Below, piece after piece: positions 15,354 to 30,570 of a stretch of DNA of 64,000 nt; the first letter of the stretch is position 1; every line of letters begins with the position of its first letter. A program made the translations under genes and the position numbers. Below the pieces are notes generated by a model. That model did no database searches. It saw only the letters and a list, made by a program, of their open reading frames with translations, and was not told where the DNA came from. Location of the stretch: assembly GCF_007744075.1 (NCBI RefSeq), contig NZ_CP036266.1:2368501-2432500 (forward strand), read 5' to 3'. The DNA comes from Gimesia chilikensis (GTDB lineage: Bacteria; Planctomycetota; Planctomycetia; Planctomycetales; Planctomycetaceae).

Positions 15354-18041
15354 TCAATCTGCTGTCTTTTCCCGCGAATGACTCTCCAGAAAAGCGATCA
15401 GGTCCCGCAACTCGCGATCCGTCAACGCATGCACGAGACCCTGAGGCATGAAGGAAACCGGCGACTCGACAATCGCTTCCACATCATCCCGATCAAACGT
15501 CTTGTTCTGACCGTGAGCATCACGAATCGTCTCCTTCACGTATGACCGCAGCCGGATCCCCGTAAACGTCCTCCCGTCCGTCAGAATGATTGTTCGCGGC
15601 TGATATTCCGGAGCCATCTCCCGGCTCGGTTCGAGAATCGAACGCAACAGCCACGCCCGATCCTGCCGATCACCCAGGCTGCTCAAGTCAGGCCCCACCA
15701 CGTTCCCGCGACCACTGTGTCGATGACAGTGCGCACAGTTCGTCAGCCGGGAATGATGAAACAGCCGCCGTCCGCTCTCCACATCTGCTGCCCCTTGAAC
15801 CCCTTCAACCGCTTTCAGCCACGCGCCGGTATCAGTCAAAGCAGGGCGGTCCGTTTTCAGTGCGCCCGGATTCACGGCCGCCTCGAACGCATCCTTTGAA
15901 TCGGGATACGCTTTCGCCAGCGTCTTGATTTGTTTCTTCTGCGCATCGGTCAGTTGGATCGAACGCAGACACCGCAGCGACTCTTCACGAACCACCTGGT
16001 CGGAAGAATCCGCCAGCTTCAGCATCAACCCGACCTGCTGTTCCGCCAGCGGCGCCAGGCCCGCAATCGCTTCGGCTCGCAGTACCGCATCCTGTTTTGG
16101 ATCCGCGGCCAGCTCCGCCAGAATCTTCTGTGACACAATCGGATTCCCCGACAGCGTCCGCACCGCTTCCAGCGACAACTCCGCATCATTCACCGCCAGC
16201 AGTTCTTCCAGCATCGCCAGCGTCAGCCCCTTGGGAAACTGTGTCACCACCTGCTGTCCCGCTTTCGGAGCAGACCGCGACTGCGTCGGCAGCATCCGCA
16301 AGGCGTACGCCCGAATCTGCGGGGCACTCTGTTTGTCCTTCACGCGGGCCAGCAGCATCTCCGGATTCCGCACGCCGTCCAATGCCTTGCCGTTCAACGT
16401 GTTCCACGCCTCAATCGCTGCTTCAAACCGCTGATAATCCAGATCACTCTGCGCCAGCACCTGTTCCACATCAGGCAGATACGCTTTCAAACCCATATCC
16501 GAAATCCAGCGGATCGTCTCGAACTGCACGTCCGCGTTCTTGTCCTTCAGGAAGACCGGAATCCACGTTTCCGGCTCCACCTGGGCCAGCTGCAGCGCCA
16601 GTACCGCCTGCACCCGTTCCGCCGGCGACCACTTCATGACCTCCGCGGGCGTCCACTTAGACGCTTTATGAGACAACGCCACCAATGCCGCCCGGGCGAC
16701 AAAAGGATCCTCGTTCTGCGCCAGCTTCAACAGTTCTTTCACAGACTGTGTCGCATGTCCGCTCCGCAGATCCGCTGCCAGCTTCGCCTCTTGCGTCGGC
16801 GGTTCCAGTTCCAGCGGCCCCACCCAGTCGGCTTTCGTCAGATCAATCTCAAGCTTCCACACCCGTCCGTAACCATGCGCCTGATACCGTCCATCAACCC
16901 AGTCACACAGATACCAGGTCATCACTTTCTGATTTTCTTTAGGAGAAGCCCCGTCCCGTGGGGCGGCCCCGACCTTCGGGGCGGCAGCGATACAACTCGG
17001 ACGAAAATATCGGCCCCCTTTCACAATCGTGATCGGCTTCGAGGTGAAACTCGCTCCCTGTTGCGTGAGCGGAAAAAAGTCAACGCTGTGATCGCCCCAC
17101 GAAGGGACCAGCAGACCTCGGCCCAGCGGTGCGATCCCACACGGTGCTTCACCCGAAGGATGAATCATCGGCAGCGTGCCCCGCAACTCACCATTCCAGG
17201 CCACAAACGGATGATGGGCTTCCGAACCGTAACCCCTGTCGTAACCATAATCGCCCCCTTCGACAATATGCAGCACGCGACACGGCGGCCGTTCTCCGGG
17301 ATCGTTCTCCGCAGCGAAGATCTCGCCATCCGCCCGCACACAGATGCCAAACGGATTCCAGAATCCCTCCGCAATCCGCTTCAGCTGTTTGCCGTCTGCA
17401 GTACAACGGAAGATGCCCCCTTTGCCCGCGCCGGTAATCTTCGTCCCGTCGGTCCCCGTCAGCGTCCAGTCCTTGGCGAAGTTTTCACCGATCGCAAAAA
17501 TCAGCTTCCCCCGGTTATCCCACGCCAACCCTTCCAGACCGTTGTGCGGATAGTCTGCTTCACTCTCGAGCACCGCGATGTTCTCTTCGACGTCCGCCTT
17601 CCCGTCGCCGTCAGTATCCTTGATCCGCAGAATCCGATCCCGCTCCGCCAGGTACACCCAGCCATCCGGCCCCAGTTCCAGGTCCATCGTCGCATCGGTT
17701 GCGTTGTAGAACACCTGTCGCTTCTGTGCCCGTCCCGCTTTGTCCAGATCGGAAAAGATGAGAATCTCATCGTGCTCCGGACCTTCATAATCGTCGGGCC
17801 GAAAATGCGTGTGCGTCGCCACCACCCAGACCCGCCCTTGTTCGTCCACATCCACGCCGGTCGGAGTCGACAACTGAGGCTGCTCAGCCACCAGCGACAA
17901 CGTCACTCCCGGCTGCACCGCTTTCACCTGGGGAGGACGGTCGTCTGCCGGACCTTTGTCCGCGGGACTCTTGTCCGCAGCTTGAGATGACGAGACCAGC
18001 ATAGACGTAACTAACAACACAAACAGCGACAGCGATTTCAT
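15354..18041 (-). CDS. PVC-type membrane-bound dehydrogenase-like haem protein
   Basis: An 895-residue exported protein. Start ATG 18041 is chosen because it opens a clear signal peptide (MKSLSLFVLLVTSMLVSSSQA) with AGAGAG upstream; the open frame extends further but through non-coding repeat sequence. After a short linker comes a beta-propeller dehydrogenase-like domain (PTGVDVDEQGRVWVV, LGPDGWVYLAERDRI, DTDGDGKADVEE), then HEAT-like repeats, then a C-terminal cytochrome c domain with CAHCH near residue 767 and the PVC-specific tail (LEPSREMAPEY...RTFTGIRL). Such proteins are periplasmic and presumed to oxidise sugars or alcohols; the substrate is unknown. An in-frame double-hairpin insertion (16948-16985) adds an Ala/Pro/Lys-rich loop. 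Confidence 0.9.
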   Translation of the reverse strand: MKSLSLFVLLVTSMLVSSSQAADKSPADKGPADDRPPQVKAVQPGVTLSLVAEQPQLSTPTGVDVDEQGRVWVVATHTHFRPDDYEGPEHDEILIFSDLDKAGRAQKRQVFYNATDATMDLELGPDGWVYLAERDRILRIKDTDGDGKADVEENIAVLESEADYPHNGLEGLAWDNRGKLIFAIGENFAKDWTLTGTDGTKITGAGKGGIFRCTADGKQLKRIAEGFWNPFGICVRADGEIFAAENDPGERPPCRVLHIVEGGDYGYDRGYGSEAHHPFVAWNGELRGTLPMIHPSGEAPCGIAPLGRGLLVPSWGDHSVDFFPLTQQGASFTSKPITIVKGGRYFRPSCIAAAPKVGAAPRDGASPKENQKVMTWYLCDWVDGRYQAHGYGRVWKLEIDLTKADWVGPLELEPPTQEAKLAADLRSGHATQSVKELLKLAQNEDPFVARAALVALSHKASKWTPAEVMKWSPAERVQAVLALQLAQVEPETWIPVFLKDKNADVQFETIRWISDMGLKAYLPDVEQVLAQSDLDYQRFEAAIEAWNTLNGKALDGVRNPEMLLARVKDKQSAPQIRAYALRMLPTQSRSAPKAGQQVVTQFPKGLTLAMLEELLAVNDAELSLEAVRTLSGNPIVSQKILAELAADPKQDAVLRAEAIAGLAPLAEQQVGLMLKLADSSDQVVREESLRCLRSIQLTDAQKKQIKTLAKAYPDSKDAFEAAVNPGALKTDRPALTDTGAWLKAVEGVQGAADVESGRRLFHHSRLTNCAHCHRHSGRGNVVGPDLSSLGDRQDRAWLLRSILEPSREMAPEYQPRTIILTDGRTFTGIRLRSYVKETIRDAHGQNKTFDRDDVEAIVESPVSFMPQGLVHALTDRELRDLIAFLESHSREKTAD
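16948..16985. repeat. In-frame double-hairpin insertion inside the haem-protein gene
   Basis: Two consecutive hairpins (GCCCC-GTCCCGT-GGGGC and GCCCCGA-CCTT-CGGGGC) lie inside the coding region between conserved segments. Their translation is a low-complexity loop (AAPKVGAAPRDGASPK). This looks like insertion of a small palindromic repeat that preserved the frame. Confidence 0.6.
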
Positions 18042-18419
18042 GATGATCTCTCTTTTGAGGGCAGGGGGTGGGCAGTATCTGCAGGCAGCCATCAACGGCT
18101 CCTTATAAGCTAACGCACCGCTCCACCCGAGGCAACCGATTCTCACCGCCCGGCGGATGATCATCGTCGCACCACTGACGAAACCCGCACTGCGCACCGG
18201 GCACATCTGCACTTGCTGCTGAAATTGAACTTGATCGGCCCCCACCGAAGCGTATGGTAGTTCCCTTCTGGCTCGCGCGCGAGGCACGTCCCCGAGCACC
18301 GAAACACGCCCCACCTCTGACCGAAGTTCACCTGCACCTCCGCCGATTTTCACCCCCTGTCTACCGAAACACACCGCACCACTTCGCAATGTCAACCTCG
18401 CCCAGTTCAGGGCACACCA

Positions 18420-18500
18420 GGACAAACCCCGGCCGAACAAGGACAAAATCCAGGCCACACCAGGACAAAATCCGGCCACATCGGGACAAAATTCTGTCTT
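18420..18500. repeat. Degenerate 21-22 bp tandem repeat, four units
   Basis: GGACAAA recurs at 18420, 18441, 18463 and 18484, each followed by A/T then a GGCC-type tail in the first three units. The spacing of 21, 22 and 21 bp is about two helical turns, so all copies face the same side of the helix. Confidence 0.8.
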
Positions 18501-18680
18501 GACCCCCTCACGCCGATGAAGAAGATAACAGCCAACACCCAGGCCAACCTCACCACATACCCGCACAGCCCAACCCCGTTTCAAATTACAGATCATGTCA
18601 ACCAACAATCCCATAACCAACTCCCTTCAGGATCAGAGGTTCAAACTGAAAGTTTCAAATCGCCTCATATCGTATTGACC

Positions 18681-18711
18681 CGTAGGGGCAGAGCCTGCGT
18701 GCCTGCCCGCC
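18681..18711. repeat. Hairpin repeat family C, copy 1
   Basis: Begins CGTAGGGGCAG and ends CTGCCCGCC; GGGCAG pairs with CTGCCC. A second copy is at 19738-19768. Confidence 0.6.
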
Positions 18712-18763
18712 TCGCGACATTGTCCAGCAACAAGCCTCCAATGGAACGACATCCAGTCCCCCC

Positions 18764-18842
18764 GTGAGCGGCAAGGCACAATCCGCCGGTAAAAACGGTC
18801 GACGCTGCATAAAACACCGGTGGCTAGTGCCATTCCGCTCAC
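18764..18842. repeat. Hairpin repeat family A, copy 1
   Basis: Outer arms GTGAGCGG (18764-18771) and CCGCTCAC (18835-18842) pair perfectly; inside them GGCAC pairs with GTGCC and CCGCCGGT pairs with ACCGGTGG through one G-U. The second copy at 19218-19294 differs but still pairs. Confidence 0.75.
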
Positions 18843-18862
18843 AGAAACGAAGTCATCAACCC

Positions 18863-18998
18863 GTGAGCGGCAAAGCGCTAGCTGCCGGTAACCAGGGTCA
18901 ACACCGAACACAACACCAGTCACAAAAGTTATCCCACCCACTCACAGCTCCACCCAAAACCGTTTCGTGCCTTTCGAAAATTTCGTGGTAAAAAAAAC
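18863..18998. repeat. Repeat family B, copy 1
   Basis: Starts GTGAGCGGCAAAGCG, continues with CCGGTAACCAGGG, ATCCCACCCACT and CAGCT, and ends in the TTTCGTGGTA-A-run motif. Related copies are at 19315-19438 and 19818-19948. Confidence 0.75.
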
Positions 18999-19143
18999 GG
19001 GTAAGTCCGAATACAATTCGGGCCGAGCGCAGCGAGCAGGAAATTGACAGTGTTGCGTACCTGAATAGAAATCCTGGTTTAAAGTCATCCCCTCAAATCA
19101 GCCACAACCAGATTCACCAACTCCCCACCCCCAAAAGAAAATC

Positions 19144-19173
19144 AGCCGCAGGGCCTTAGCCCCGGTTGAAACG
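19144..19173. repeat. Dispersed 30-bp repeat, copy 1
   Basis: Matches 36595-36624 at 28 of 30 positions; the shared core is TTAGCCCCGGTTGAAACG. Both copies lie in intergenic DNA. Confidence 0.8.
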
Positions 19174-19217
19174 TCTTAGTTAAAGCCCATGGAAAATCAG
19201 AACCACCACCAACTCCC

Positions 19218-19294
19218 GAGCGGAAAGGCACAACCCACCGGTAAACACGGTTGACGCTGCATAAATCACCGGTGGCTAGCGCCATTCCGCTCAC
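19218..19294. repeat. Hairpin repeat family A, copy 2
   Basis: Arms GAGCGG (19218-19223) and CCGCTC (19287-19292) pair, with inner CCACCGGT and ACCGGTGG pairing perfectly. Compared with copy 1 the left inner arm changed G to A so that a G-U pair becomes A-U, which keeps the hairpin. Confidence 0.75.
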
Positions 19295-19314
19295 AAAAAC
19301 GAAGCCACCAGCCC

Positions 19315-19438
19315 CTGAGCAGCAAGGCACAACCCGCCGGTAACCAGGGTCAACACCGAATATAACACCAGTCATAAAAGGTATCCCACCCACTGACAGC
19401 TCCAACCAGAATCGTTTCGAGAATTTCGTGGTAGAAAA
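19315..19438. repeat. Repeat family B, copy 2
   Basis: Shares the CCGGTAACCAGGGTC segment, ATCCCACCCACT and the terminal TTTCGTGGTAGAAAA motif with copies 1 and 3. The GTGAGCGG start has decayed to CTGAGCAG. Confidence 0.75.
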
Positions 19439-19498
19439 TCAAACTCCAAACACCCATTCTACCCAACGGCACCGCCCCACCAACGTGAACATCGCGCA

Positions 19499-19606
19499 TC
19501 ATTTCCGCCGCGACTGATACCGCACGGCCCCCGCCAGGCAGGCCAGCAACAACACCCCGGCCGTAATCACGGCCGTCATTTGAACCAGAGAAACCAGGCT
19601 ATTCAT
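19499..19606 (-). CDS. Tiny single-pass membrane protein (35 aa)
   Basis: A 35-residue frame starts at ATG 19606 with GGGAG 6 nt upstream, an ideal ribosome-binding site. The product starts MNSLVSLVQMTAV, has one transmembrane helix (about residues 9-27, ending LLLACLAGAV) and a basic tail RYQSRRK, so the C-terminus should be cytoplasmic by the positive-inside rule. It lies alone within repeat-rich DNA, flanked by repeat families B and C. No known family is recognised. Coding is supported by the RBS, clean hydrophobic pattern and charged tail; the short length leaves doubt. Confidence 0.55.
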   Translation of the reverse strand: MNSLVSLVQMTAVITAGVLLLACLAGAVRYQSRRK

Positions 19607-19737
19607 AATTCACTCCCGCGTGTCAAAAACCATCAAACAAGTCTGCAGACAGTATCGCCCCGACAGGTAAAACCACGCTGAAGCAAATCTAAAATATCCT
19701 TCATCTAAAAAAATAAGCCCCCAGACTGATTCCCAAA

Positions 19738-19768
19738 CGTAGGGGCAGCCCTATGTGGCTGCCCGCCG
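19738..19768. repeat. Hairpin repeat family C, copy 2
   Basis: GGGCAGCC and GGCTGCCC form a perfect 8-bp stem with a 6-nt loop; flanking CGTAGG and CGCC match copy 1 at 18681-18711. Confidence 0.65.
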
Positions 19769-19817
19769 AACGAAATGACCCGTATAACTCCCCCCACATC
19801 TCAATCAGACAACGCCT

Positions 19818-19948
19818 GTGAGCGGCAAAGCGCCAGCAGCCGGTAACCAGGGGCGACACTGAATACAACACCAGTCACAATAGTTATCCCACCCACTTAC
19901 AGCTGCAACCAATCGTTTCGTGCGTTTCGAGAATTTCGTGGTAGAAAA
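19818..19948. repeat. Repeat family B, copy 3
   Basis: Starts GTGAGCGGCAAAGCG like copy 1, carries CCGGTAACCAGGG and ATCCCACCCACT, and ends TTTCGTGGTAGAAAA like copy 2. Confidence 0.75.
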
Positions 19949-20013
19949 CAAACTCCAGGCCGCCGCATTCTACCCAATGGCATCTCACCACCAACGTGAA
20001 TATCGCGAACGAC

Positions 20014-20715
20014 TCAATCCCGCGTGATCTCTGCATAGATCCCGTAATGGTCAGAAAGACTCATGCCTTCGGCGGTTTTCCTGTCGAGCACTTCAATATT
20101 CGTCACCTGCAGATCAGGTGTGGCCGCGAGATGGTCAATTAGATGCTTCTCCGCGGGACCCAGCGGGCCGGCCGTATGCACCTTCAGTCCCAGTGACAGC
20201 ACTTCGTTTAATTTCTCATAAGCATACTTCGGCTGCCGTGCTTTCGGGATTCGTTGATTGAAATCGCCGGTAACGACGAGGGGCCCCTGGCTCAGCAGAT
20301 CACTCAACAGCTCCTTTAGGGCGTCCAGGTAGAGCAGGTGGTCTTCCCAGGTCTTTCGGTCCTTACGTCCGCCTGAAACATGAGCGGCACTCCAGGGGAT
20401 ACAGATACCCACAAACCGGACTCCGCCGGTTACTCCGCTCACAATGCGTCCCGAGGGAAAACTCAGGTCGTCATGAATCGAAACTTCATCCCAGGGCTGG
20501 GCACTCCACAGCAGCACCTTCCGGCGGCCTTCTTTGATGGGATAACCATAATCAGGCCCCGATTCAATCAGATGGCCACTCTCAGGTAACAGCCCCACTT
20601 TGGCTTCAGTTAGACAGATCATATCTGGAGAGCGACTCTGAATCAATTCCTGCAGTCGTCTCCCCCGTTTTATATGAGGGATCGCCCATGCTGTATTCCA
20701 GATCACACACCGCAT
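20014..20715 (-). CDS. Endonuclease/exonuclease/phosphatase (EEP) superfamily protein
   Basis: A 233-residue compact EEP-fold protein, last gene of a three-gene operon. Family motifs are in the expected order: RCVIWNTAW (N-terminal Asn strand), CLTEAK with the metal-binding Glu near residue 38, GDFN around 150 and the C-terminal SDHYGIYAEI with the catalytic Asp-His pair. No signal peptide, so a cytoplasmic metal-dependent phosphodiesterase is expected; the substrate (DNA, RNA or small phosphodiester) cannot be told. The start lies 2 nt beyond the stop of the DUF5655-like gene (20718), implying translational coupling. Confidence 0.88.
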   Translation of the reverse strand: MRCVIWNTAWAIPHIKRGRRLQELIQSRSPDMICLTEAKVGLLPESGHLIESGPDYGYPIKEGRRKVLLWSAQPWDEVSIHDDLSFPSGRIVSGVTGGVRFVGICIPWSAAHVSGGRKDRKTWEDHLLYLDALKELLSDLLSQGPLVVTGDFNQRIPKARQPKYAYEKLNEVLSLGLKVHTAGPLGPAEKHLIDHLAATPDLQVTNIEVLDRKTAEGMSLSDHYGIYAEITRD

Positions 20716-20717
20716 AG

Positions 20718-21641
20718 TTAACTCGCCTGATAACTCTCTTCGATCAGGGGCAACGCCCGTACCAAGTCTTCCTGAGAATGAAGTGTGATTTCCAAATTAC
20801 CAGTTCCAAAATGGGCGATATCCCGGACATCGCGTGTGAATCCTTCTTCCAAGTCGACAGTATCTGGATTCACCTTAACAAAAACGAGAAGTGTATTGAT
20901 TGTAGCACGTACATCTACACAAACGAAATTCTTGAGACGCTTAAATGCGATGTATCGTTTGGGTGTCTTTATCTGGACATCATCACCGAATCCCAGGCAG
21001 GTCTCTTTGAGAGTTTCGAAGACGTCACGGAGTTGAGGACTAGCCTGTTCAAGTTGTTCCACCACCGTTCTATCTTTGGATTTTGACTTTGATTTCTCAT
21101 TGTCTACAGCACTTGTGTTCTCAGACGCAGATGATGCTTGGACTGCATTTAGTAACTCCAGCAGTAGAAGTTCTTCATCGAATCGAATGTATCGTAGCAG
21201 TTCAATATTTCGGTTCATCTGCTGTACGGCGTGTGAATCGTATTTATTGAAATCCCCGGCTATACAGAGCAGACGGGGGTTCGACCATTCTATGTTTTCC
21301 GCCATTTCCTGGCCGAACTGCTTGATCACCATCAGTTCGAATTCCGCCCGGTGATCCATCAGCCAGTCCAGGTAAAACAGCCCCTGGTTGATCACGTTTT
21401 CATTACTGGTCCGCTTGTATTCGATAATACATGGGCAGCCGTTCTCATCGATCCCCAGCGTGTCAATCCGCCCAGCGTGCGTTTTACCGGTGGAATATTC
21501 ACTAGCCAGAAATTTTATTCCCAGCAGTGTCTCGAGATGATTTTCGATCAAGATCTGCAGCGATTTTTCCAACGCCACCGTCTTACCTTCCAGTTCGGTG
21601 ACGGCATCGCCCTGCGTACGAAATAATTTAATATCACTCAT
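20718..21641 (-). CDS. PD-(D/E)XK nuclease-like protein with C-terminal DUF5655
   Basis: A 307-residue protein. The N-terminal half has the PD-(D/E)XK-type core: LEKSLQILIENHLETLL helix, GRID with Asp60, EYK (Glu74 and Lys76) and Gln86 in the following helix, a layout like NucS/RecB-type endonucleases. After a charged linker (KSKSKSKD, about 185-195) the C-terminal part resembles DUF5655 (VFETLKETCLGFGDDVQIKTPKRYIAFKR...FVCVDV). All core catalytic residues are present, so activity on DNA is possible. It overlaps the upstream gene by 4 nt (ATGA at 21638-21641) and is followed within 2 nt by the EEP gene. Confidence 0.8.
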   Translation of the reverse strand: MSDIKLFRTQGDAVTELEGKTVALEKSLQILIENHLETLLGIKFLASEYSTGKTHAGRIDTLGIDENGCPCIIEYKRTSNENVINQGLFYLDWLMDHRAEFELMVIKQFGQEMAENIEWSNPRLLCIAGDFNKYDSHAVQQMNRNIELLRYIRFDEELLLLELLNAVQASSASENTSAVDNEKSKSKSKDRTVVEQLEQASPQLRDVFETLKETCLGFGDDVQIKTPKRYIAFKRLKNFVCVDVRATINTLLVFVKVNPDTVDLEEGFTRDVRDIAHFGTGNLEITLHSQEDLVRALPLIEESYQAS

Positions 21642-22501
21642 GAGGCTGCCCAGTATTCTCCGGAAATCGCGGTCAGTTTTTTAAATACGTCTTTGTGCTG
21701 TTCGATCGTCTTTTTATCCGAAGTAAAACGCAGGCGTTTGGATTTGGAGATATACGTAATACTGATCGAGTCCAGCAGCTCCTTAGCTTCCTCCAGTAAA
21801 TGATCGGGAATCCGGAACTCAAACAGACTCTTGCCGTCGCTCCGCTTATGCAGAAAGCAATAGCTGTTACTGTTTAACGTGATCGCGATATAGAACTTGG
21901 TATAGTTCAGTTCCGAATGCTCCAGGATCTCCTCGCTGACTTCCTGCAGCGCTTTCGCATTCTCAATCACCCACGAAGCCCGCTCCTTCCAGTAACTCAG
22001 ATCGTATGACTTATTATCCGGAGCGGCACCGTCGTCGATCTCTTCGTAAGTATCCAACACCTTCGTGAAATGCAGAGAACGCACCCCGCACACCTCGATG
22101 ATATTGGCCTGAATCGCAATGATCGGGATCGAATGGCTCAGCAGATGAATCACGTTGAAAAACCGACGCGTGATTGACTCCGCTACCAGCACCGCCGTAT
22201 GCTGTCGCTGCGGCCAGCGTCGTTTTTCGTTATCCCAGTATTCGATCGTGCGGATGATATGCGATTCATCGGTATCCCCGAGCATGATTTCGACTTCATA
22301 CATCGCATCATCCTCGGCGTTTTTCATCAACAGATCCAGCCGCCCGCCGCTCGACTGCCGACGTTCCTTGTCGATGGCATCCAACTCACCCAGACCGAGA
22401 CAACTAGGGTTTTCATAGATCTGATCCTGCAGCCAGTATTCGTTATAGCCACACTCACGAATCGAAAGCTTGCTGGCAATCGGTAGCGGCGTCGGTTCCA
22501 T
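21638..22501 (-). CDS. PD-(D/E)XK-like protein of unknown function
   Basis: A 287-residue cytoplasmic protein, first gene of the operon. Residues 15-75 show a nuclease-like core: helix NEYWLQDQIYENPS, GGRLDLL with Asp56, then YEVEIMLG with Glu69 and Glu71 in place of the usual E-x-K, followed by ESHIIRTIEYW. Replacement of Lys by Glu occurs in some active members but also in inactive ones. The C-terminal half (about 170-287) contains a helical segment and a strand-rich FYIAITLNSNSYCFLHKR part without a recognised family. No methyltransferase or helicase is nearby, so this is not a standard restriction system. Confidence 0.72.
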   Translation of the reverse strand: MEPTPLPIASKLSIRECGYNEYWLQDQIYENPSCLGLGELDAIDKERRQSSGGRLDLLMKNAEDDAMYEVEIMLGDTDESHIIRTIEYWDNEKRRWPQRQHTAVLVAESITRRFFNVIHLLSHSIPIIAIQANIIEVCGVRSLHFTKVLDTYEEIDDGAAPDNKSYDLSYWKERASWVIENAKALQEVSEEILEHSELNYTKFYIAITLNSNSYCFLHKRSDGKSLFEFRIPDHLLEEAKELLDSISITYISKSKRLRFTSDKKTIEQHKDVFKKLTAISGEYWAAS

Positions 22502-22900
22502 TCAGGTTCTCCTAGAGATTGTCTTCTGACTTCACTTCGATTTTTCCAGGGCTGAATGTCCCTGTTTTACCTAACTTGTTTTCCTGCCATCATTTGGTAC
22601 ACTTAATGACTGTACACTCATCCTACTCGGACGACATTCAAAAGTCGATCATGAGAAACCATTGATTTGAAATTCGAACACTCCAGGAACCAGCCGGCAC
22701 TGTCTGACTCAATCGCACCATCCAGACCTTTCGTGCTTTTCGCGTCTTTCGATGTAGAAAAAAACAAACGAGTCGACCTCAGCCGGATCTTATAAGATCT
22801 GCGGATGAAACTCTCTTGCTTAGTTCTTACTTGAATACTGCACTGACGTTCGCTATTTTTAGAAGTGTTACTCGGTGATCGCAATTCTTTTTCAATACAT
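22502..22900. other. Intergenic region upstream of nuclease operon and TPR gene
   Basis: About 400 bases between divergent genes. It contains a diverged TTTCGTG...GTAGAAA motif related to repeat family B (22729-22765) and a perfect 14-bp palindrome GATCTTATAAGATC at 22786-22799. No gene is seen. Confidence 0.55.
22786..22799. promoter_or_regulatory. 14-bp perfect palindrome
   Basis: GATCTTATAAGATC is fully self-complementary and lies about 100 nt before the TPR gene; it could be a protein-binding site. No regulator is assigned. Confidence 0.35.
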
Positions 22901-25900
22901 ATGATGGATTCTGAGATGCCCTTTGCTTACTGCCTGGATCTTTTTCGTCCGTGTCTTGCCTGTGGTGGTGTTCGTGTACTGCTGGTCTGTCTGCTGATTG
23001 TGTCCGCATTGGGGACATCCCCGGTCGAGGCCAGCCAGAAACGCAGTGCTGCCGTGCAGCCGACGGTCTACCTGGATCTGCAGAAGCAGGATACGAACGT
23101 TCGCGTTCCTGGCGTTCTCATTCGCGAACTGTTTCGGCAGGCCTTTCTGATCGCCGCCCGCGAAGAGTTTGGCGCCCGCACACGCGATGCCTCTCTGGGC
23201 GAACCGCTTCCGGCTCTGAAAGACAAAGATGTGCCGGTCTTCAATATCCATGTCACCATCACTCGTCGTGGGCGGTATGTCGTTCAGGTCATGCAGCGGG
23301 ACGGTGAAAAATTAAAGCAGATTGAAAAGCGGGATCTGAAACTGACCAATCGGAGTTCCGCCACCGAGGCCGTCCAGTTGGCAGAGGAGTACTCGCGTAC
23401 CTGGTTTAAGGATCTGCTGCAGCAGGCCGGTTACGTCCCGCAGAAAAGGAAAGCCACCAAAGAGGCGATTCCCACCGAGCCGCTCCGTTTTATCAAGGTG
23501 GACGATCTGAACTTCCGGCAGCAGTACGGGCAACTGATCGATGCGCACGCCGCGATAGCGAAGCAGGGGGAGTCTCCCGCACTTTTGGCGCAACTGGCTC
23601 GAAGCTATGCTCTGTTTGGAACACTGACCGAACAGTACTGGAGCCTGATTCCCCTGGCGACCAAAGCCCGCGGACTGCTGTATGCAGAACGCCTGCAGCA
23701 GAAGCATCCCGACACCGCCTACGCCCTTTCCAATCGGGCCCTGGTGCGGGGGCTGCTGGGACTGGATCGGATGGCACTCAAGGACATCGAAACGATTGCG
23801 GGTCTGAAGTCACAAACGAATGTGCCCGCAGAATGGCTGCCGGTCGTCGAAGCCCACTGTCGGTACGACACCCGGAAACTGAAGGACCAGAAGCTGACTC
23901 CGGAAAATGAACTGCTGCGGGACTATCTCGCTCTGCTGCAGGTCACTTATTTCGGCACGCCTCAACAGCAGAACGATATCGCCGATGTGCTGCTGGCCCG
24001 GGACACCCGCTCGGTGCGGGCCTTTTATACCAGGCCCCGAACGCTCGACGACCGTCAGAGCCTGGTGATGATTCATGATGTGAACATCAGGCTGCTGCAT
24101 TTTTGTCAGCCTCGTCTCAAAGGGAAAAATGTCCGCAAACTGCTTCCCGAATTCGCCGGCACCAGACTGCAGAACCTGGTTGAAAGCCGCGATGCCCTCG
24201 TGGCGGTGCTCAAGGACCGGGGAATGGATCCGGCTGAGAAAACCGAGCCTTCCTTTTCGATGCTGGCCAGCACGGTGCAGGATCTGACCATGCTGCAGGC
24301 CTGGGATTTGGTCAGTCGCAGACAGGAACTCAGGTCCGTGAATGCGGACCAGGAACTCAATCTGTTTTTGAAATCGCTGGACAAGCATCCCTTCAAGCCG
24401 TTCCTGCAGACCTTCGGCTGGCAGCAGGCGATCGCACTCGAGGCGTTTAACGAATTGGGCCAGGTCCCGGGAGAGTACTGGACCACGGCGACGCATCAGA
24501 TTCTGGCCCGCGACCGCGAAATCGGTCTGCCCAACGAACCGCTGGAAACGGTCCGCGATACCACCTATATCCGTAACGGCAGTCATGTGATTTCCGAGCT
24601 GGCCTTCGTAATCGACTACGCAGTTCCCGAAGAGGAAAAGCCGCAATGGGTCCCTCACTTGACAGCCGTCAGTCCGGATTCCCCTTACACCATCATTCAG
24701 GAACTGACTTTTAACTGGAAGCAGAACGAGCCGCGCGTCCCCGAACTGCTCAAGAGATATGCCGATGTCGATCAACTGACCCATGCGATTGCCTACCAGT
24801 ATTCACTGCGATTCGATTATCCCCGCGCGGAAACGATCTATCAGCAAGTCTTCAACCAGCGTCCGACTTACGAGAACATCTACCCCCTGATTAAAATCGC
24901 CCAGCTGCAGGGGAAAGACGAACAGGAACTGAGGCTGCGTAACGAAGCTCTGGCGCTGGTACAGAGCGTGATGGAACGCGCGGGAGTGGAGGCTGAGATC
25001 GCCCGCTATTACATTAAGAAGAAAGACTACAAAGAGGCTTTAAAGCATGCCAAAGTGGCTGCGAAAACGTACTCTGGCTGGGGCCTGAGACTTGAGGCGG
25101 AGTGCCATGAACTTCTGGGCGATCTGGACAGTGCCCTGGAACTGCGCAAACAGGAAGCGGTCCGTTATAACAATCAATTTGATTTCCATACCTGGTGCCG
25201 TTCGCGGGGACTCGAACCGCCCGCGGAAATACAGACGTTTCTCAAGCCTTATGTGGATTATTATTCCAAAGTGCCACTGTCCGATGACCGGTATCTTGTT
25301 TCTGATCAGCTGATGTACAAACAGCTTTCTGTGGTTGGCTGTTATCAGTATCTCGAAGGAAATCCGCAGGCAGCCATGAAAGTCTGGGACTACACTGCGG
25401 ATGAGTACCATTTTGTAGCCGAAGCGTTTCCGGCAATCATGGCGGCACTGATTGCCGATGAACTGGGTATGACGAAAGAACGGGATGAGTATCTCTCGCA
25501 GGCGATTAACATCGAATTTCTCTCCCGGGGCAAGAAATATCATCTGCCGCAGCTCAATCAGATCCTGCTCTGCAAACGGATTCTCACCGGGAAAGATGCT
25601 CAGGCCCTCTCACCCGAGGTGATCGACTGGTATCTGCAGGAACCGGAAAGTCACCAGGCTCGCATTTTTTATCAGTATTTCGTCGGCAAGGCACTGCTGC
25701 AGAAAAAACAGAACAAACTGGCAATCCGCTATCTACAGCAGGCTGCCGAATCGGAAGAGATGACAGGCCTGCTGGCAGCAGCGGTGCTCCGTAAACTGAA
25801 ACACAAACCGGAACCTGTCGAAACACAGGCTGCGGAGCAGAGTACAACAGACTTACATGAACTGTTAGATCAGGTTTACGCTTACGAATATCACAAACGT

Positions 25901-26458
25901 CGCGAACTGCAACTGGTGACGTTAAATCGGGCGGCAGAACTGTTTCCTGAATCCAGTCTCGTTTTCATCAGACGAGGCAAGCTGCAGGCGCTCCTGAAAC
26001 AGCGGGATCGCGCCCGACAGGATTTTGATAAAGCCATCGAACTGACACCAGAGGTGCCGGAGGTTTGGATTAGCCGCGGTGAGTATCTTGAGTCCACAGG
26101 TCAGGATCAGGCTGCTGTCAAAGACTTCGAAGAGGTGGTACAACGCGATCCCCAGAACAGCTTCGCACCGCAGGCTGCCGCTAAACTGCTCGCCTCCAGC
26201 CCGGACGACAAGGTGCGTGACGGCAAACGGGCACTCGAATATGCACAGCAGGCAACCCGGCTCATCCCCGAACAGAAATCTCTAAACATGGCGCTGCTGG
26301 CAGCCGCGTATGCTGAACTAGGGCAGTTCGATAAAGCGAAAGAATATAATCAAAATGCGATCAAATACGAACAAAATTATCGCAGCAAAAAATCTTACCA
26401 GAGTCGACAGAAGCTCTATGATGCTGGGAAGCCCTATCGATTAAAGAAGCGTTCCTGA
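22901..26458 (+). CDS. Large exported TPR-repeat protein
   Basis: About 1,185 residues from ATG 22901 (MMDSEMPFAY); an in-frame GTG at 22865 is less likely, and no strong ribosome-binding site marks either. A hydrophobic segment (VRVLLVCLLIVSALGTSPVEA) acts as signal peptide or anchor. The body is helical with tetratricopeptide-like repeats, clearest near the C-terminus (FIRRGKLQALLKQRDRARQDF, VWISRGEYLESTGQDQAAVKDF, LAAAYAELGQFDKAKEY). A short beta-rich domain (DVPVFNIHVTITRRGRYVV) follows the N-terminus. It lies directly upstream of the MoxR operon and may belong to the same function; TPR proteins often accompany Bat clusters. Its partner is unknown. Confidence 0.85.
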   Translation: MMDSEMPFAYCLDLFRPCLACGGVRVLLVCLLIVSALGTSPVEASQKRSAAVQPTVYLDLQKQDTNVRVPGVLIRELFRQAFLIAAREEFGARTRDASLGEPLPALKDKDVPVFNIHVTITRRGRYVVQVMQRDGEKLKQIEKRDLKLTNRSSATEAVQLAEEYSRTWFKDLLQQAGYVPQKRKATKEAIPTEPLRFIKVDDLNFRQQYGQLIDAHAAIAKQGESPALLAQLARSYALFGTLTEQYWSLIPLATKARGLLYAERLQQKHPDTAYALSNRALVRGLLGLDRMALKDIETIAGLKSQTNVPAEWLPVVEAHCRYDTRKLKDQKLTPENELLRDYLALLQVTYFGTPQQQNDIADVLLARDTRSVRAFYTRPRTLDDRQSLVMIHDVNIRLLHFCQPRLKGKNVRKLLPEFAGTRLQNLVESRDALVAVLKDRGMDPAEKTEPSFSMLASTVQDLTMLQAWDLVSRRQELRSVNADQELNLFLKSLDKHPFKPFLQTFGWQQAIALEAFNELGQVPGEYWTTATHQILARDREIGLPNEPLETVRDTTYIRNGSHVISELAFVIDYAVPEEEKPQWVPHLTAVSPDSPYTIIQELTFNWKQNEPRVPELLKRYADVDQLTHAIAYQYSLRFDYPRAETIYQQVFNQRPTYENIYPLIKIAQLQGKDEQELRLRNEALALVQSVMERAGVEAEIARYYIKKKDYKEALKHAKVAAKTYSGWGLRLEAECHELLGDLDSALELRKQEAVRYNNQFDFHTWCRSRGLEPPAEIQTFLKPYVDYYSKVPLSDDRYLVSDQLMYKQLSVVGCYQYLEGNPQAAMKVWDYTADEYHFVAEAFPAIMAALIADELGMTKERDEYLSQAINIEFLSRGKKYHLPQLNQILLCKRILTGKDAQALSPEVIDWYLQEPESHQARIFYQYFVGKALLQKKQNKLAIRYLQQAAESEEMTGLLAAAVLRKLKHKPEPVETQAAEQSTTDLHELLDQVYAYEYHKRRELQLVTLNRAAELFPESSLVFIRRGKLQALLKQRDRARQDFDKAIELTPEVPEVWISRGEYLESTGQDQAAVKDFEEVVQRDPQNSFAPQAAAKLLASSPDDKVRDGKRALEYAQQATRLIPEQKSLNMALLAAAYAELGQFDKAKEYNQNAIKYEQNYRSKKSYQSRQKLYDAGKPYRLKKRS

Positions 26459-26562
26459 AAAACTGTTTTCAGAAGACCAGCAATCCGGAGTTAAATTCCC
26501 GGGAACTCTGCACTCCGCCGGCGCGTCAGGAAATTGCTGTGAAAGTTGTTGACAGTCGCTGA

Positions 26563-26598
26563 GGGGCACTTTTAAGATATACTGTGCCCCTGTTTATT
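26563..26598 (+). terminator. Hairpin between TPR gene and moxR-like gene
   Basis: GGGGCAC (26563-26569) pairs with GTGCCCC (26584-26590), followed by TGTTTATTT. It may terminate the TPR transcript; a TTGACA at 26549-26554 close by could be part of a promoter for the next gene. Confidence 0.4.
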
Positions 26599-26741
26599 TG
26601 TGGGCACTTTTGTCTAGATCGCCAGCGCCATTCGGTGACAGGCAGCATTTCGCCCTGCTGCCCGCGGTTTCTGCAACTGAGTTTCTACCTACTCTGCCCC
26701 AGACACAATCGATTTCCCGTCAGCATGGAACGATATCATCT

Positions 26742-27782
26742 ATGAACAGCTCCGCTGCCAGCCAACATGAGGTTTCGGAAGAAGTCCTCAAGAATGCCCA
26801 GTTCATCCAAGCCGTCCGCGACCAGGTCGCCACGGTCGTCGTCGGTCAGGATGAGGTCGTCGAACGCCTGTTGATCTCGCTGTTTACCGGCGGTCATATT
26901 CTGCTCCAGGGGGTGCCGGGACTGGCGAAAACGCTGCTCGTGTCGGTTCTCTCCAAATCGATCGACCTCGATTTCTCCCGCATTCAGTTCACCATCGACC
27001 TGCTGCCCTCCGATATTCTGGGTTCGCAGATCCTCGATCAGAAAACCAACGAGTTCGTCACCCGCACCGGGCCGATCTTCACCAACCTGCTGCTGGCCGA
27101 CGAAATCAACCGGGCCGCTCCCAAGGTGCAGGGGGCGCTGCTGGAAGCGATGCAGGAACGCAAAGTGACCATCGGCAACGAAACCTTCTCACTCCCCGCG
27201 CCGTTCCTGGTGATCGCCACGCAGAACCCGGTGGAGCAGGCCGGAACCTTTGAACTGCCCGAGGCCCAACTCGACCGCTTCATGCTTTGTCACCGCCTGG
27301 ACTATCCCGATCCGAGTGAGGAACGCGAAGTCCTCAAACGCAACATGGCACTCGGCATTCGTCGCGAAGACCGCGGGGCTGTGGTGAATACCGAATTCGA
27401 CGTGATGCAGCAACAGCCCGTCGGCACAGCCGATGACCTGGTCGCCTGCATGCAGGCCGTCAACGACATTCACGTCAGCGATACCTTCGTGGAACACGTG
27501 ATCGAAGTCATCAACCGCACACGCAATCATCCCAACATCGAACTGGGCTGCAGCCCGCGTGCCGGCATCGCGCTGGTCAAGGCCTCCCGCGCCCGGGCTC
27601 TGATCCAGGGACGCAACTACGTGATTCCCGAAGATCTGTTCGTGCTGGCCGAAGATGTCATCCTGCACCGCATCCGGCTGAATTACGAAGCGCTCGCCGA
27701 CGGACTCACCGGCAAAGGAGTGCTGCAGGATATGCTCCGCGACCTGGGGGCGACGCCATCCCTGGTCGGGCGGGAGGACTAA
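26742..27782 (+). CDS. moxR: MoxR-family AAA+ ATPase
   Basis: A 346-residue ATPase from ATG 26742 (MNSSAASQHE); the open frame extends 48 codons upstream but that part is not conserved-looking. Walker A GVPGLAKT is at 57-64 and Walker B LLLADE at 117-121, with a sensor-type TQNP motif (near 161) and the MoxR-typical DRFMLCHRLDYP. MoxR ATPases act as chaperones that mature partner proteins and are encoded with VWA-domain proteins. Here it heads an operon with DUF58, two BatA/BatB-type VWA proteins and membrane or TPR proteins, the standard arrangement of aerotolerance-type (Bat) clusters. Confidence 0.96.
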   Translation: MNSSAASQHEVSEEVLKNAQFIQAVRDQVATVVVGQDEVVERLLISLFTGGHILLQGVPGLAKTLLVSVLSKSIDLDFSRIQFTIDLLPSDILGSQILDQKTNEFVTRTGPIFTNLLLADEINRAAPKVQGALLEAMQERKVTIGNETFSLPAPFLVIATQNPVEQAGTFELPEAQLDRFMLCHRLDYPDPSEEREVLKRNMALGIRREDRGAVVNTEFDVMQQQPVGTADDLVACMQAVNDIHVSDTFVEHVIEVINRTRNHPNIELGCSPRAGIALVKASRARALIQGRNYVIPEDLFVLAEDVILHRIRLNYEALADGLTGKGVLQDMLRDLGATPSLVGRED

Positions 27783-27840
27783 TCGCCGCTGTCTCGAATC
27801 ACGTTATCGAATACTCTCACAGATTTAAAACAGGTGCTGC

Positions 27841-28701
27841 ATGGAAGGCTTACTGGAACAGATTGATCCGCTGGACGCGCGGCAGTTCTACATTGCCGTC
27901 AAGCGACTCGCGGACAGCCTGAGTTACGGGACCGACAAGTCGCCGTTTCTCGGTTCCGGGCTCGAGTTCTTTCAGTCGCGACCCTACCAGGAAGGGGACC
28001 CGATTAAAAGCATCGACTGGCGGGTTACCGCCCGCACCGGGAAGCTGTTTATTAAGGAATACGAGACGCCCAAGCGGCTCCCCTGTTATCTGCTCATCGA
28101 CACCTCTGCTTCGATGATGATCAGCTCCACCGCGAAAAGTAAATACGGTCTGGCCCTGCACATCGCGGGCGGACTCGCCTTTGCCTGCCTGGAACGCGTC
28201 AGTCCCGTCGGCGTTCTCGGCGTCGGCGAAACCGATCTGCGGATTCATCCCAGCCTTTCCAAAGACCAGGTCATGCAGTGGCTGGTCCGCCTGAGACGTT
28301 TCCGCTACGACGAACAGACCACCATCGGTCAGCGGGTGGCCGAGTTCAGCCCCAGCCTCAAGAGCCGGGCGCTGATTATCGTCCTCTCCGACCTGCACGA
28401 TCCCAAAGCGGTTCCCGCCCTCAAGCAACTCGCCCAACGGCACGACACCGTGGTGATCCAGTTTCGCGATCCGGCTGAGACCGGGCTGCGCGGAGCCGGA
28501 CTGATGCGGGCCCGCGAAGCAGAGACCGGCAGCGACTTCGTCACACACGGACGCAAGGTCTGGCTCGACCAGGAGCAGATCGACTTCCAGCTGAAACGCA
28601 GCGGCATCGATCATCTGTTGATCGAAACGGACGAGCCGTTCGTCCCCCATTTAAGGCAGTTCTTTTCTTCCCGCGATATTCTCTCACGAGGGAGCCGTTA
28701 A
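27841..28701 (+). CDS. DUF58 domain protein
   Basis: A 286-residue protein with the DUF58 signature: GLEFFQSRPYQEGDPIKSIDWRVTAR around residues 40-66, and a degenerate VWA-like DTSAS site at 87-91. No membrane segment, so it is cytoplasmic, as most DUF58 partners of MoxR. It starts 58 nt after the MoxR gene, and its TAA overlaps the ATG of the next gene (TAATG at 28699-28703), showing translational coupling. Confidence 0.93.
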   Translation: MEGLLEQIDPLDARQFYIAVKRLADSLSYGTDKSPFLGSGLEFFQSRPYQEGDPIKSIDWRVTARTGKLFIKEYETPKRLPCYLLIDTSASMMISSTAKSKYGLALHIAGGLAFACLERVSPVGVLGVGETDLRIHPSLSKDQVMQWLVRLRRFRYDEQTTIGQRVAEFSPSLKSRALIIVLSDLHDPKAVPALKQLAQRHDTVVIQFRDPAETGLRGAGLMRAREAETGSDFVTHGRKVWLDQEQIDFQLKRSGIDHLLIETDEPFVPHLRQFFSSRDILSRGSR

Positions 28702-29579
28702 TGAGAGACCGGCAGGCATTTTATCGAACTCTGATTCTGCAGCCACTCGCGCTGGTCCTGCTGACCTGCGTCTACGGAGCCGCGCCGTCTCCCTCCGCCG
28801 CAGCAGAGGAGCCCTCCAGTGCGTCGGTCGGCATGTCGCAACGCATCGAGGACATCATCCTCCCCGGTTCCGAACTGCAGGTCAAACAGATCGCCGACGA
28901 CGATCCGATCATCTTAAGGATTGTCAGCCTCCACCCGCACGGCCCGGACATGTTCCGCTATGAACTGGAATACTACGGCCTGAAACCCGGTGAATATAAT
29001 CTGGCAGACTTCCTCGAACGCAAAGACAAGAGTGCATTGGGCGAACTGCCCGCGATCCCGGTGAGTATCAAGTCGATTCTCCCCGCCAGTCGCGTGGAAC
29101 CCAACAGCCCCTCGGCCACGTCGATCCCCCGGATCGGCGGCTACCAGTTCTGGATGACCATCATCTTCCTGCTCTGGGCAGTGGGCGCCTTTCTGATTGT
29201 CTTCGTCAAACGTAAATCAGCCACCGAGAGCGACGAATCACAACAGCCGCCTCCGTCGCTATCAGATCGTCTGCAGCCCATGGTCGAAAAAGCGATCGCG
29301 GGGAAACTGACTCAGACACAGATGGCGGAACTGGAAATGATGCTGGTTGCGTTCTGGCGAAAACGACTGCATCTGGAGCAGACCGACGTCGCCGAGGTGA
29401 CCCGGATTTTAAGACAGCACGAGGAAGCCGGTCCGCTGCTGCAACAGCTGGAAATTCTGCTGCATCGCCCCGACGCAGATCCGCAGTTGAACAGCCCGCA
29501 GATCGCGCAGATTCTGGAACCGTATCAAAATCTGCCCGCCGATGCCCTCGACGAGGAGCTGGCGTCACTCGCTACCTGA
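28701..29579 (+). CDS. Bat-operon membrane protein, one central TM helix
   Basis: A 292-residue protein in the position often held by a DUF4381 or BatD-like gene. It has an N-terminal signal peptide (to about AAAEE, residue 37), a short periplasmic domain with the beta-rich IILRIVSLHPHGPDMFRYELEYYGL, a transmembrane helix at about 150-170 (FWMTIIFLLWAVGAFLIVFV), and a cytoplasmic helical tail that includes MVAFWRKRLHLEQ, reminiscent of DUF4381-type sequences. The start overlaps the previous stop by one base. Family assignment is tentative. Confidence 0.75.
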   Translation: MRDRQAFYRTLILQPLALVLLTCVYGAAPSPSAAAEEPSSASVGMSQRIEDIILPGSELQVKQIADDDPIILRIVSLHPHGPDMFRYELEYYGLKPGEYNLADFLERKDKSALGELPAIPVSIKSILPASRVEPNSPSATSIPRIGGYQFWMTIIFLLWAVGAFLIVFVKRKSATESDESQQPPPSLSDRLQPMVEKAIAGKLTQTQMAELEMMLVAFWRKRLHLEQTDVAEVTRILRQHEEAGPLLQQLEILLHRPDADPQLNSPQIAQILEPYQNLPADALDEELASLAT

Positions 29580-29649
29580 ATACAGACTGAGTTGGAATTT
29601 ACTGAAACCGAAATCAATACAACCAAAGGCAAACTGGTAAATCGACGTT

Positions 29650-30570
29650 ATGAGTTTTTCACATCCCTGGGTACTCCTGTTCTTAATCGTGCCGATCGCG
29701 CTGCTGGTCTGGATCTGGCGGCGTGACGGGGGACACGTCGTGCTCCCCTTCGACCACGGAGTTCAGACGCGCGGACGTGCCTGGGGAACGCTGGTCAATC
29801 TCGCGCAGTCACTGCCCGCGTTGATCCTCGCGGTCGTCGTACTGATTCTCGCCGGTCCGCAACAACTGAGTGCTCCCAAAACCAGGCGGGTGCTGACCAA
29901 CATCGAATTCTGCGTCGACGTCTCCGGCAGTATGACCGCCTCCTTCGGTGAAGGCACACGCTACGATGCCTCGATGGCGGCCATCAACAAGTTTCTCGAT
30001 TACCGTGAAGGCGACGCCTTCGGCCTGACGTTCTTCGGCAACGAAGTCCTGCACTGGGTTCCCCTGACGACCGATGTCTCCGCGATCAAATGCGCGCCCC
30101 CGTTCATGGATCCCATGAGCCCCGGGCATCCGCACTGGCTGGGAGGCACCGAAATCGGTAAGGCCCTCCGCGCGTGCCGGGAAGTACTCATCTCGCGCGA
30201 GCAGGGGGACCGGATGATTGTCCTCGTCTCCGACGGCTACAGCTTCGATCTGGGCAACGGACAGGATGTGGAGATTGCCGAAAAACTCAAGGCGGATGGC
30301 ATCGTGGTTTACGCGATTCACATCGCAGCCAGTGAAGTGCCCGGTCCGGTTGTGAACATCACCGGTCTCACGGGGGGCGAGGTCTTCGAGCCCGAAAGCC
30401 CGCAGGCACTGGAAACCGTGTTCAAGCACATCGACGATATGCAGGAGACGCGTCTGGAACGGACGGCGGCGGAATCGATGGACAACTTTTATCCCTACAG
30501 CCTGGCAGGTCTGATCCTGCTGGGGAGCAGCACACTTTCACTCTTTGGATTGAGGTTTACACCGTGGTAG
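29650..30570 (+). CDS. VWA-domain membrane protein, BatA-type
   Basis: A 306-residue protein with two N-terminal transmembrane helices (about 6-24 and 52-69), a von Willebrand A domain with a complete MIDAS motif (DVSGSM, Asp90-Met95; GGTEIG; SDGYS) and a C-terminal helix (about 284-300). This is the BatA topology: the VWA domain exposed between membrane anchors, where it is thought to interact with the MoxR ATPase. The coding region ends in GTGGTAG, where the GTG starts the next gene. Confidence 0.94.
   Translation: MSFSHPWVLLFLIVPIALLVWIWRRDGGHVVLPFDHGVQTRGRAWGTLVNLAQSLPALILAVVVLILAGPQQLSAPKTRRVLTNIEFCVDVSGSMTASFGEGTRYDASMAAINKFLDYREGDAFGLTFFGNEVLHWVPLTTDVSAIKCAPPFMDPMSPGHPHWLGGTEIGKALRACREVLISREQGDRMIVLVSDGYSFDLGNGQDVEIAEKLKADGIVVYAIHIAASEVPGPVVNITGLTGGEVFEPESPQALETVFKHIDDMQETRLERTAAESMDNFYPYSLAGLILLGSSTLSLFGLRFTPW

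What the first reader, a model, noticed from the sequence alone, without database searches (positions are those of the whole stretch)
20014..22501. Tightly coupled operon of two PD-(D/E)XK-like proteins and an EEP-fold nuclease
Three minus-strand genes overlap or abut (ATGA overlap at 21638-21641, 2-nt gap at 20716-20717) and each encodes a nuclease-type fold: a D-ExE variant, a D-ExK plus DUF5655 protein, and an EEP protein with all catalytic motifs. No methyltransferase, helicase or integrase is nearby, so this is not a known restriction system. It sits beside an unusually repeat-rich spacer. A role in phage or plasmid defence, or nucleic-acid turnover, is a hypothesis only.
Basis: partly seen in the sequence, partly recalled or inferred. 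Interest (0 to 1): 0.75.

Follow-up and report, generated by a model that had tools for sequence, protein, structure and literature searches.

The report
Swappable nuclease genes in bacterial hotspot
Three overlapping nuclease-type genes in a planctomycete sit at a spot in the chromosome where close relatives carry other anti-virus or candidate anti-virus genes; they look like local, interchangeable defence cargo rather than a conserved three-part system.

Summary
The three genes are real and coupled as described. C is an EEP nuclease; B is the PADLOC candidate PDC-S18; A matches no family searched. Predicted structures support both cores and give A and B one architecture without a BLAST cross-hit: an EndoMS/NucS-type nuclease domain followed by a YjbR/YdhG/MotA-CTD-like domain. 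The 'D-ExE' reading of A fails: in 18 of 18 family members D56 and E71 are invariant and the lysine position is Gln or Met. The set does not recur: A lies beside B only in this genome and its nearest relative (2 of 14 A-carrying genomes among 392), and C joins them only here. B's relatives often sit with type I restriction genes (16 of 35 loci), yet this genome has no PF02384 methylase. Between the same flanks, four genomes hold A-B-C, A with truncated B, two PDC-S11 genes, or a type I RM with Septu: a strain-variable defence hotspot, resting on three independent contents. Most likely B is a DNA-cutting anti-phage effector, A a lysine-less look-alike, C an accessory nuclease. No activity was tested.

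The parts
21638..22501 (-). Gene A, 287 aa: unnamed family; EndoMS/NucS-type nuclease fold (about residues 16-150) with invariant D56 and E71, catalytic-lysine position Met73 (Q/M in the family), R84xxxY88; C-terminal YdhG/YjbR/MotA-CTD-like domain (about 166-287)
20718..21641 (-). Gene B, 307 aa: PADLOC PDC-S18; NucS-type nuclease domain (about 22-165) with D60, E74-Y-K76, Q86xxxY90; C-terminal DUF5655 domain (195-306), YjbR/YdhG-like fold
20014..20715 (-). Gene C, 233 aa: endonuclease/exonuclease/phosphatase (EEP) protein with the conserved motif residues
21638..21641 (-). ATGA overlap of A stop and B start
20716..20717 (-). 2-nt gap between B stop and C start
18621..20013 (.). Repeat-rich spacer in which colinear homology to relatives ends (about 19.9 kb for G005 and G001; G009's contig ends at about 19.8-20.0 kb); further matches up to 20007 are to other repeat copies
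19901..21201 (.). Segment (all of C and the 3' half of B; left edge approximate, inside repeats) replaced by unrelated DNA in the nearest relative G005
19896..26494 (.). Segment (A, B, C and the TPR gene; left edge approximate) replaced in G001 by two PDC-S11 genes
15354..18620 (-). Left flanking conserved gene (DUF7133/HEAT/cytochrome c protein)
22865..26458 (+). TPR protein gene, also inside the variable interval (not detected at this site in G001 and G010)
26598..30570 (+). Right flanking conserved MoxR ATPase - DUF58 - (28701-29579, no family) - VWA genes

Best explanation
The three genes are defence-type cargo at a strain-variable chromosomal hotspot between a conserved DUF7133/cytochrome c gene and a conserved MoxR-VWA gene group. 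SHOWN: the site's content differs among close relatives, and in each of the four genomes with both flanks found it includes a known or candidate defence gene (G000 and G005 share the A-B content, so there are three independent contents); A and B have the same predicted two-domain architecture; B keeps a complete NucS/RecB-type set of active-site residues while A's family lacks the lysine; the three genes do not travel together. INFERRED: B is the effector, a DNA endonuclease steered to invading DNA by its C-terminal MotA/YjbR-like domain, working here without a type I RM system; A is a same-fold protein that binds DNA and either cuts poorly or serves as a partner or regulator of B where both are made; C trims or repairs the DNA ends, or helps degrade the DNA.
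For: Hotspot: homologues of window 15354-18620 and 26598-30570 flank different contents in G000 (A-B-C), G005 (A and truncated B), G001 (two PDC-S11 proteins, E 2.5e-165 and 9.6e-115) and G010 (HsdM, HsdS, PtuA, PtuB, HsdR). B = PDC-S18, E 9.4e-148; type I RM genes in 16 of 35 B loci outside this lineage, five of them in the order hsdM-hsdS-B-hsdR (L027, L112, L114, L117, L143; in L114 and L117 about 1.5 kb lies between B and hsdR; L027-L029 supplied seed sequences). Fold: best VIA-align match of both A (Z 13.4, rmsd 1.9, 108 aligned) and B (Z 11.3, rmsd 2.5, 106 aligned) is P. abyssi NucS 2vld; C-terminal halves match 2oc6 (Z 9.2 and 8.7) and DUF419/YjbR and MotA entries. Profile alignment places A E71/M73/R84/Y88 on B E74/K76/Q86/Y90. 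C neighbours in the genus: PDC-S18 here, PDC-S11 in G008, a McrC (PF10117) locus in G008, GajA-GajB in G009, an MTase_II beside a fragment in G009. Purifying selection.
Against: No phage or nuclease assay exists here. The hotspot rests on four genomes; in G009 the contig ends before the variable part, and in 8 more distant same-genus genomes the MoxR gene is not within the fetched 8-12 kb beside the left flank gene. PDC-S18 and PDC-S11 are only candidate families in PADLOC. A's relatives mostly show no defence neighbour: I scanned 59 hand-picked nearest neighbours of 155 listed, from 21 loci, and could name BREX (L138) and type III RM (L094) plus a few hits that the tally does not assign to a protein. 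C's distant relatives mostly sit among unrelated genes by eye, and G001's copy has no PADLOC hit among the two neighbours tested. hhalign of A versus B is weak (probability 42% and 27%), so common descent is unproven; fold Z of 8-9 for the C-terminal domains is middling. A's model has pTM 0.49 (8 sequences).
Confidence: 0.6

Rival explanations
1. A dedicated three-gene defence system: A and B form a heteromeric NucS-like nuclease (A the lysine-less subunit, B the cutting one) and C processes the product; all three are needed.
For: ATGA overlap and 2-nt spacing; A and B share one predicted architecture; NucS works as a dimer (PMC8228993, passages seen); A and the N-terminal part of B are both conserved in G005.
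Against: The set does not recur: 2 of 14 A genomes, one lineage. A keeps Q/M at the lysine position in all 18 family members, nearly all without a B nearby, so the loss is not an adaptation to B. G005 keeps A with a truncated B and no C.
Confidence: 0.12
2. Orphan remnants: B is a type I RM accessory stranded without its operon, A and C unrelated passengers; none has a present joint function.
For: B's relatives often lie with hsd genes; no PF02384 in this genome; B truncated in G005; a decayed C copy in G008.
Against: A dN/dS 0.047 and B 5' part 0 nonsynonymous to 16 synonymous changes; intact active-site residues in B and C; 19 of 35 B loci show no detectable type I gene, some of them short contigs, so B may act alone.
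Confidence: 0.18
3. DNA repair or housekeeping nucleases: NucS-like mismatch or break repair plus an ExoIII-like EEP enzyme.
For: Best structural match is the repair enzyme EndoMS/NucS; best solved sequence relative of C is an exodeoxyribonuclease III (6lpm, E 8.4e-7).
Against: Patchy: A in 14, B in 26 of 392 phylum genomes; site content swaps between strains; no NucS N-terminal dimerisation domain ahead of the nuclease domain; B fails the NucS equivalog scores.
Confidence: 0.1

Closest known systems
PDC-S18 (PADLOC phage defence candidate)
   Same: B matches PDLC04946 over residues 1-306, E 9.4e-148
   Different: B here is coupled to A and C; in the 35 other loci it stands with type I RM genes (16) or without them (19) and never with A or C
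PDC-S11 / DUF4268 NucS-like proteins
   Same: two of the three I scanned match NucS_C weakly, all three DUF4268; occupy the same site in G001; one precedes a C relative in G008
   Different: C-terminal domain is DUF4268, not DUF5655; window B matches PDC-S11 only weakly (E 8.2e-8)
EndoMS/NucS mismatch endonuclease
   Same: predicted fold of the nuclease domain; B keeps the D-ExK-QxxxY residues
   Different: no N-terminal beta-barrel DNA-binding/dimerisation domain; nuclease domain comes first; A lacks the lysine
Core defence hotspots (P. aeruginosa cDHS1/2, PMC10250203, passages seen)
   Same: conserved flanking genes with interchangeable immune genes between them
   Different: seen in four genomes only; flank linkage not found in the fetched stretches of 8 more distant same-genus genomes; no tRNA or tmRNA found in the window
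Type I restriction-modification operons with a DUF5655 gene
   Same: B family gene lies between hsdS and hsdR in five loci
   Different: no hsd genes found in the 28 kb around B and no PF02384 methylase in the genome

Membership tests
PDC-S18 (B) | full-length match to the PADLOC profile | tested here: met
   PDLC04946 E 9.4e-148, residues 1-306
PDC-S18 (B) | shown anti-phage activity | not testable with these tools
   candidate family; no paper holding 'PDC-S18' or 'DUF5655' in the searched library
EndoMS/NucS (B) | RecB-type catalytic residues D, E-x-K, QxxxY | tested here: met
   31 distinct rows: D60 31, E74 30, K76 31, Q86 31, Y90 31 (motif naming partly recalled)
EndoMS/NucS (A) | RecB-type catalytic residues D, E-x-K, QxxxY | tested here: not met
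   18 distinct rows: D56 and E71 in 18, but position 73 is Q (13) or M (5), and R84 stands at the Q position in 18
EndoMS/NucS (A and B) | N-terminal half-closed beta-barrel DNA-binding and dimerisation domain | tested here: not met
   the nuclease domain is N-terminal in both models; feature as described in PMC8228993
EndoMS/NucS (B) | NCBIfam NucS equivalog cut-offs (216 and 252 bits) | tested here: not met
   21.2 and 16.1 bits
EEP superfamily (C) | Pfam Exo_endo_phos above curated cut-off and conserved motif residues | tested here: met
   42.9 bits vs 24.5; residues (motif assignment recalled)
Type I RM accessory (B) | hsdM/hsdS/hsdR beside the gene | tested here: not met
   none found in the 28 kb around B; PF02384 0 matches in the genome, control positive in 13 of 14; two HSDR_N matches exist elsewhere
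Conserved three-gene defence system | A, B and C recur together | tested here: not met
   only G000 (all three) and G005 (A, truncated B) among the loci gathered
Core defence hotspot | conserved flanks with different defence genes between them | tested here: met
   G000, G001, G005, G010: 4 of 4 genomes in which I found both flanks; three independent contents, two of them known or candidate systems other than B
Core defence hotspot | present in nearly all isolates of the species | tested here: inconclusive
   one genome per species is held; flanks not linked within the fetched stretches in 8 more distant same-genus genomes; G009 ends at a contig edge

The most novel reading that the evidence does not exclude
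A and B are same-fold partners: a lysine-less NucS-type subunit (A) and an active one (B) form a heteromeric nuclease, with one recognising and one cutting half, to which C is an end-processing add-on; and A's family is an unnamed NucS-like class that works with Gln/Met in place of the catalytic lysine, perhaps using the invariant R84.
Probability: 0.12. Interest if true: 0.7.

Novelty: new variant of a known kind. Interest (0 to 1): 0.45.

Why it matters
It gives a flank-defined site in which to look for new defence genes in planctomycetes, an unnamed nuclease-fold family (A, also on phage contigs) whose sampled members all lack the catalytic lysine, and a repeated link between the DUF5655/PDC-S18 nuclease and type I restriction genes that makes an accessory role directly testable. 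It also shows a case where overlap and tight spacing did not mark a conserved system.

Tried and rejected
(1) Three-gene conserved system: rejected on adjacency. (2) A as a D-ExE enzyme: rejected on family conservation. (3) B acting with a type I RM in trans: no PF02384 match in the genome, though two HSDR_N matches exist. (4) C as an obligatory defence gene: the genome-contig scan gave 7 loci (one, L123, is the G356 contig already seen) and plasmids 5 records (four fetched); by eye most lie among unrelated genes, with exceptions L122 (NERD-helicase) and L130 (YhcG nuclease) confirmed by PADLOC. No relative of C was found in the phage collection or in viral contigs. (5) Profiles A2 and A3 against solved structures by sequence gave nothing useful. 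(6) tRNA or Rfam family as a landing site: none found in the window. (7) Promoter and terminator scan at chance level. (8) PADLOC and Pfam tallies on 59 of 155 listed neighbours of A: capped lists without assignment to proteins, so only a rough view. (9) Literature: 'DUF5655' and 'PDC-S18' 0 papers; 'PDC-S11' 2 papers, listing only; listings only; passages seen of PMC11514479, PMC8228993, PMC10250203; no paper read whole. No library of predicted cellular structures was on hand; the viral structure library was not searched.

Full report
WHAT IS THERE. The window lies at G000:C1:2368501-2432500 of an 8.29 Mb single-contig genome. The phylum is taken to be Planctomycetota: the same-phylum genome G356 holds a contig that matches the one titled 'uncultured planctomycete' in length and match position. 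The genus looks like Gimesia to me, which is recall and comes from no call.

IDENTITIES. C matches Pfam Exo_endo_phos (E 6.4e-11); its closest solved relative by sequence is an exodeoxyribonuclease III (6lpm, E 8.4e-7). B matches DUF5655 (E 3.4e-12) and, full length, the PADLOC candidate PDC-S18 (E 9.4e-148). A has no significant match in Pfam and none in NCBIfam, PADLOC or PHROGs.

STRUCTURE. AlphaFold2 models (A: pLDDT 82.6, pTM 0.49, 8 sequences; B: 85.3, 0.78, 17 sequences) both match P. abyssi NucS 2vld best by VIA-align (A Z 13.4, rmsd 1.9, 108 aligned, model 20-143; B Z 11.3, rmsd 2.5, 106 aligned, model 24-159). EndoMS/NucS entries also lead the Foldseek lists. The C-terminal parts (A 166-287, B 192-307) match the same group: 2oc6 YdhG/DUF1801 (Z 9.2 and 8.7), DUF419 2a1v (8.5 and 8.9) and the MotA C-terminal domain (8.2 and 6.5). 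So the neighbours A and B share a predicted architecture. They do not cross-hit in the BLAST screens, and profile comparison is weak (hhalign probability 42% and 27%). I therefore claim likeness, not proven common descent.

ACTIVE SITES. Census of distinct rows: B, 31 rows: D60 31, E74 30, K76 31, Q86 31, Y90 31. A, 18 rows: D56 18, E71 18, R84 18, Y88 18, position 73 Q 13 / M 5 / K 0, position 69 E 14. The hhalign register pairs E71 with E74, M73 with K76, R84 with Q86, Y88 with Y90, and the positions within the predicted strands agree. A is thus a lysine-less relative in fold, not a D-ExE enzyme. Whether it cuts DNA is unknown.

SPREAD. In 392 Planctomycetota genomes A is found in 14, B in 26 and C in 24 (E <= 0.001). 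For C only G000, G008 and G356 match strongly; the 59-genome search adds G001 and G009. A and B share a genome in G000, G005 and G353 (different contigs in G353). They are adjacent only in G000 and G005; all three genes stand together only in G000. Among the loci gathered by then, no other holds two of the three. Of 17 viral-contig loci of B and 7 of A none holds the other.

COMPANY OF EACH GENE. B: of 35 loci outside this lineage (L147 and L148 near-identical), 16 hold hsdM, hsdS or hsdR; in five the order is hsdM-hsdS-B-hsdR (seeds came from L027-L029 and L190, so L027-L029 match by construction, but they are annotated type I genes). One, in same-class G378 (L117), is 64% identical to B. This genome has no PF02384 match (control positive in 13 of 14) though it has two HSDR_N matches elsewhere. 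A: mostly solitary, on chromosomes, plasmids and (pro)phage contigs; one relative directly follows PglZ-BrxL (L138) and one lies near a type III restriction gene (L094, by eye, supported by the tally). C: five other places in the same genus were examined and four have a defence-type neighbour: PDC-S11, with PglW and PglX beyond it (G008); a 201-aa ORF without family match, then an EVE/McrB-like protein (named by eye; weak PADLOC REase_II match) and McrC (PF10117, E 3.8e-40) (G008); GajA-GajB (G009); an MTase_II beside a C fragment (G009). G001's copy has no PADLOC hit among the two neighbours tested; the G011 fragment was not examined. The PDC-S11-linked G008 copy is decayed. Distant relatives are mostly outside recognisable defence contexts, by eye.

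THE SITE. The conserved left gene (15354-18620) and right MoxR-DUF58-VWA genes are found together in G000, G005, G001 and G010. Between them: A, B, C and a TPR gene (G000); TPR, A and a B cut after its nuclease domain, with C gone (G005; 95.8% identical DNA from 21202 rightwards, unrelated DNA to its left, colinear homology again from about 19.9 kb); two PDC-S11 genes and no TPR gene (G001); HsdM, a transposase (by eye), HsdS, PtuA, PtuB and HsdR (G010; the stretches L190 and L202 overlap by 1 kb). G000 and G005 are the same content in two states, so the independent contents are three. G009 has the left flank but its contig ends there. In 8 more distant same-genus genomes the MoxR gene is not in the 8-12 kb beside the left gene. 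The left edge of exchange lies in the repeat-rich spacer; the repeat has three copies there and three partial matches elsewhere in the genome. Between G000 and G005 A has dS 0.096 and dN/dS 0.047, while the first 100 codons of B have dS 0.28 with no amino-acid change: a step that would fit recombination within the operon with selection keeping the protein (inference).

READING. The most parsimonious account is a core-defence-hotspot-like site (concept: PMC10250203, passages) carrying interchangeable nuclease genes. I infer B as the DNA-cutting effector, A as a lysine-less same-fold protein and C as an accessory nuclease. The boldest reading that stands is an A-B heteromeric NucS-like nuclease, kept at 12%.

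Noticed in passing
L033:4903-9295 (G009) and L034:5291-8873 (G001): A second variable site: with similar flanking genes, G009 has GajA-GajB (Gabija) followed by a C relative, while G001 has a transposase-like ORF (by eye) and a 233-aa protein before its C relative.
   Followed up: partly
L138:3565-8810: A relative of gene A starts a few nt after BrxL in a PglZ-BrxL (BREX) cluster on a viral contig.
   Followed up: partly
L190:71-11254 (G010): Septu genes PtuA-PtuB sit inside a type I RM locus between hsdR and hsdS, with a transposase-like ORF between hsdS and hsdM.
   Followed up: partly
L030:10293-10610 (G005): The DNA replacing C and the end of B holds a small opposite-strand ORF that reads like a winged-helix domain (by eye only).
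   Followed up: no
window 18621-20013: Spacer of repeated blocks (units of 98-211 nt) present at this site in G005, G009 and G001; partial matches at three other genome places.
   Followed up: partly
G000:C1:2684402-2684854 and 2940218-2940442: Two HSDR_N matches in a genome without any PF02384 match.
   Followed up: no
L031:8278-9001 (G008): The similarity between the window and the G008 copy of C runs about 20 nt beyond the start of C, into what is the end of B in the window although the upstream gene in G008 is a PDC-S11; possibly a scar of module exchange.
   Followed up: no
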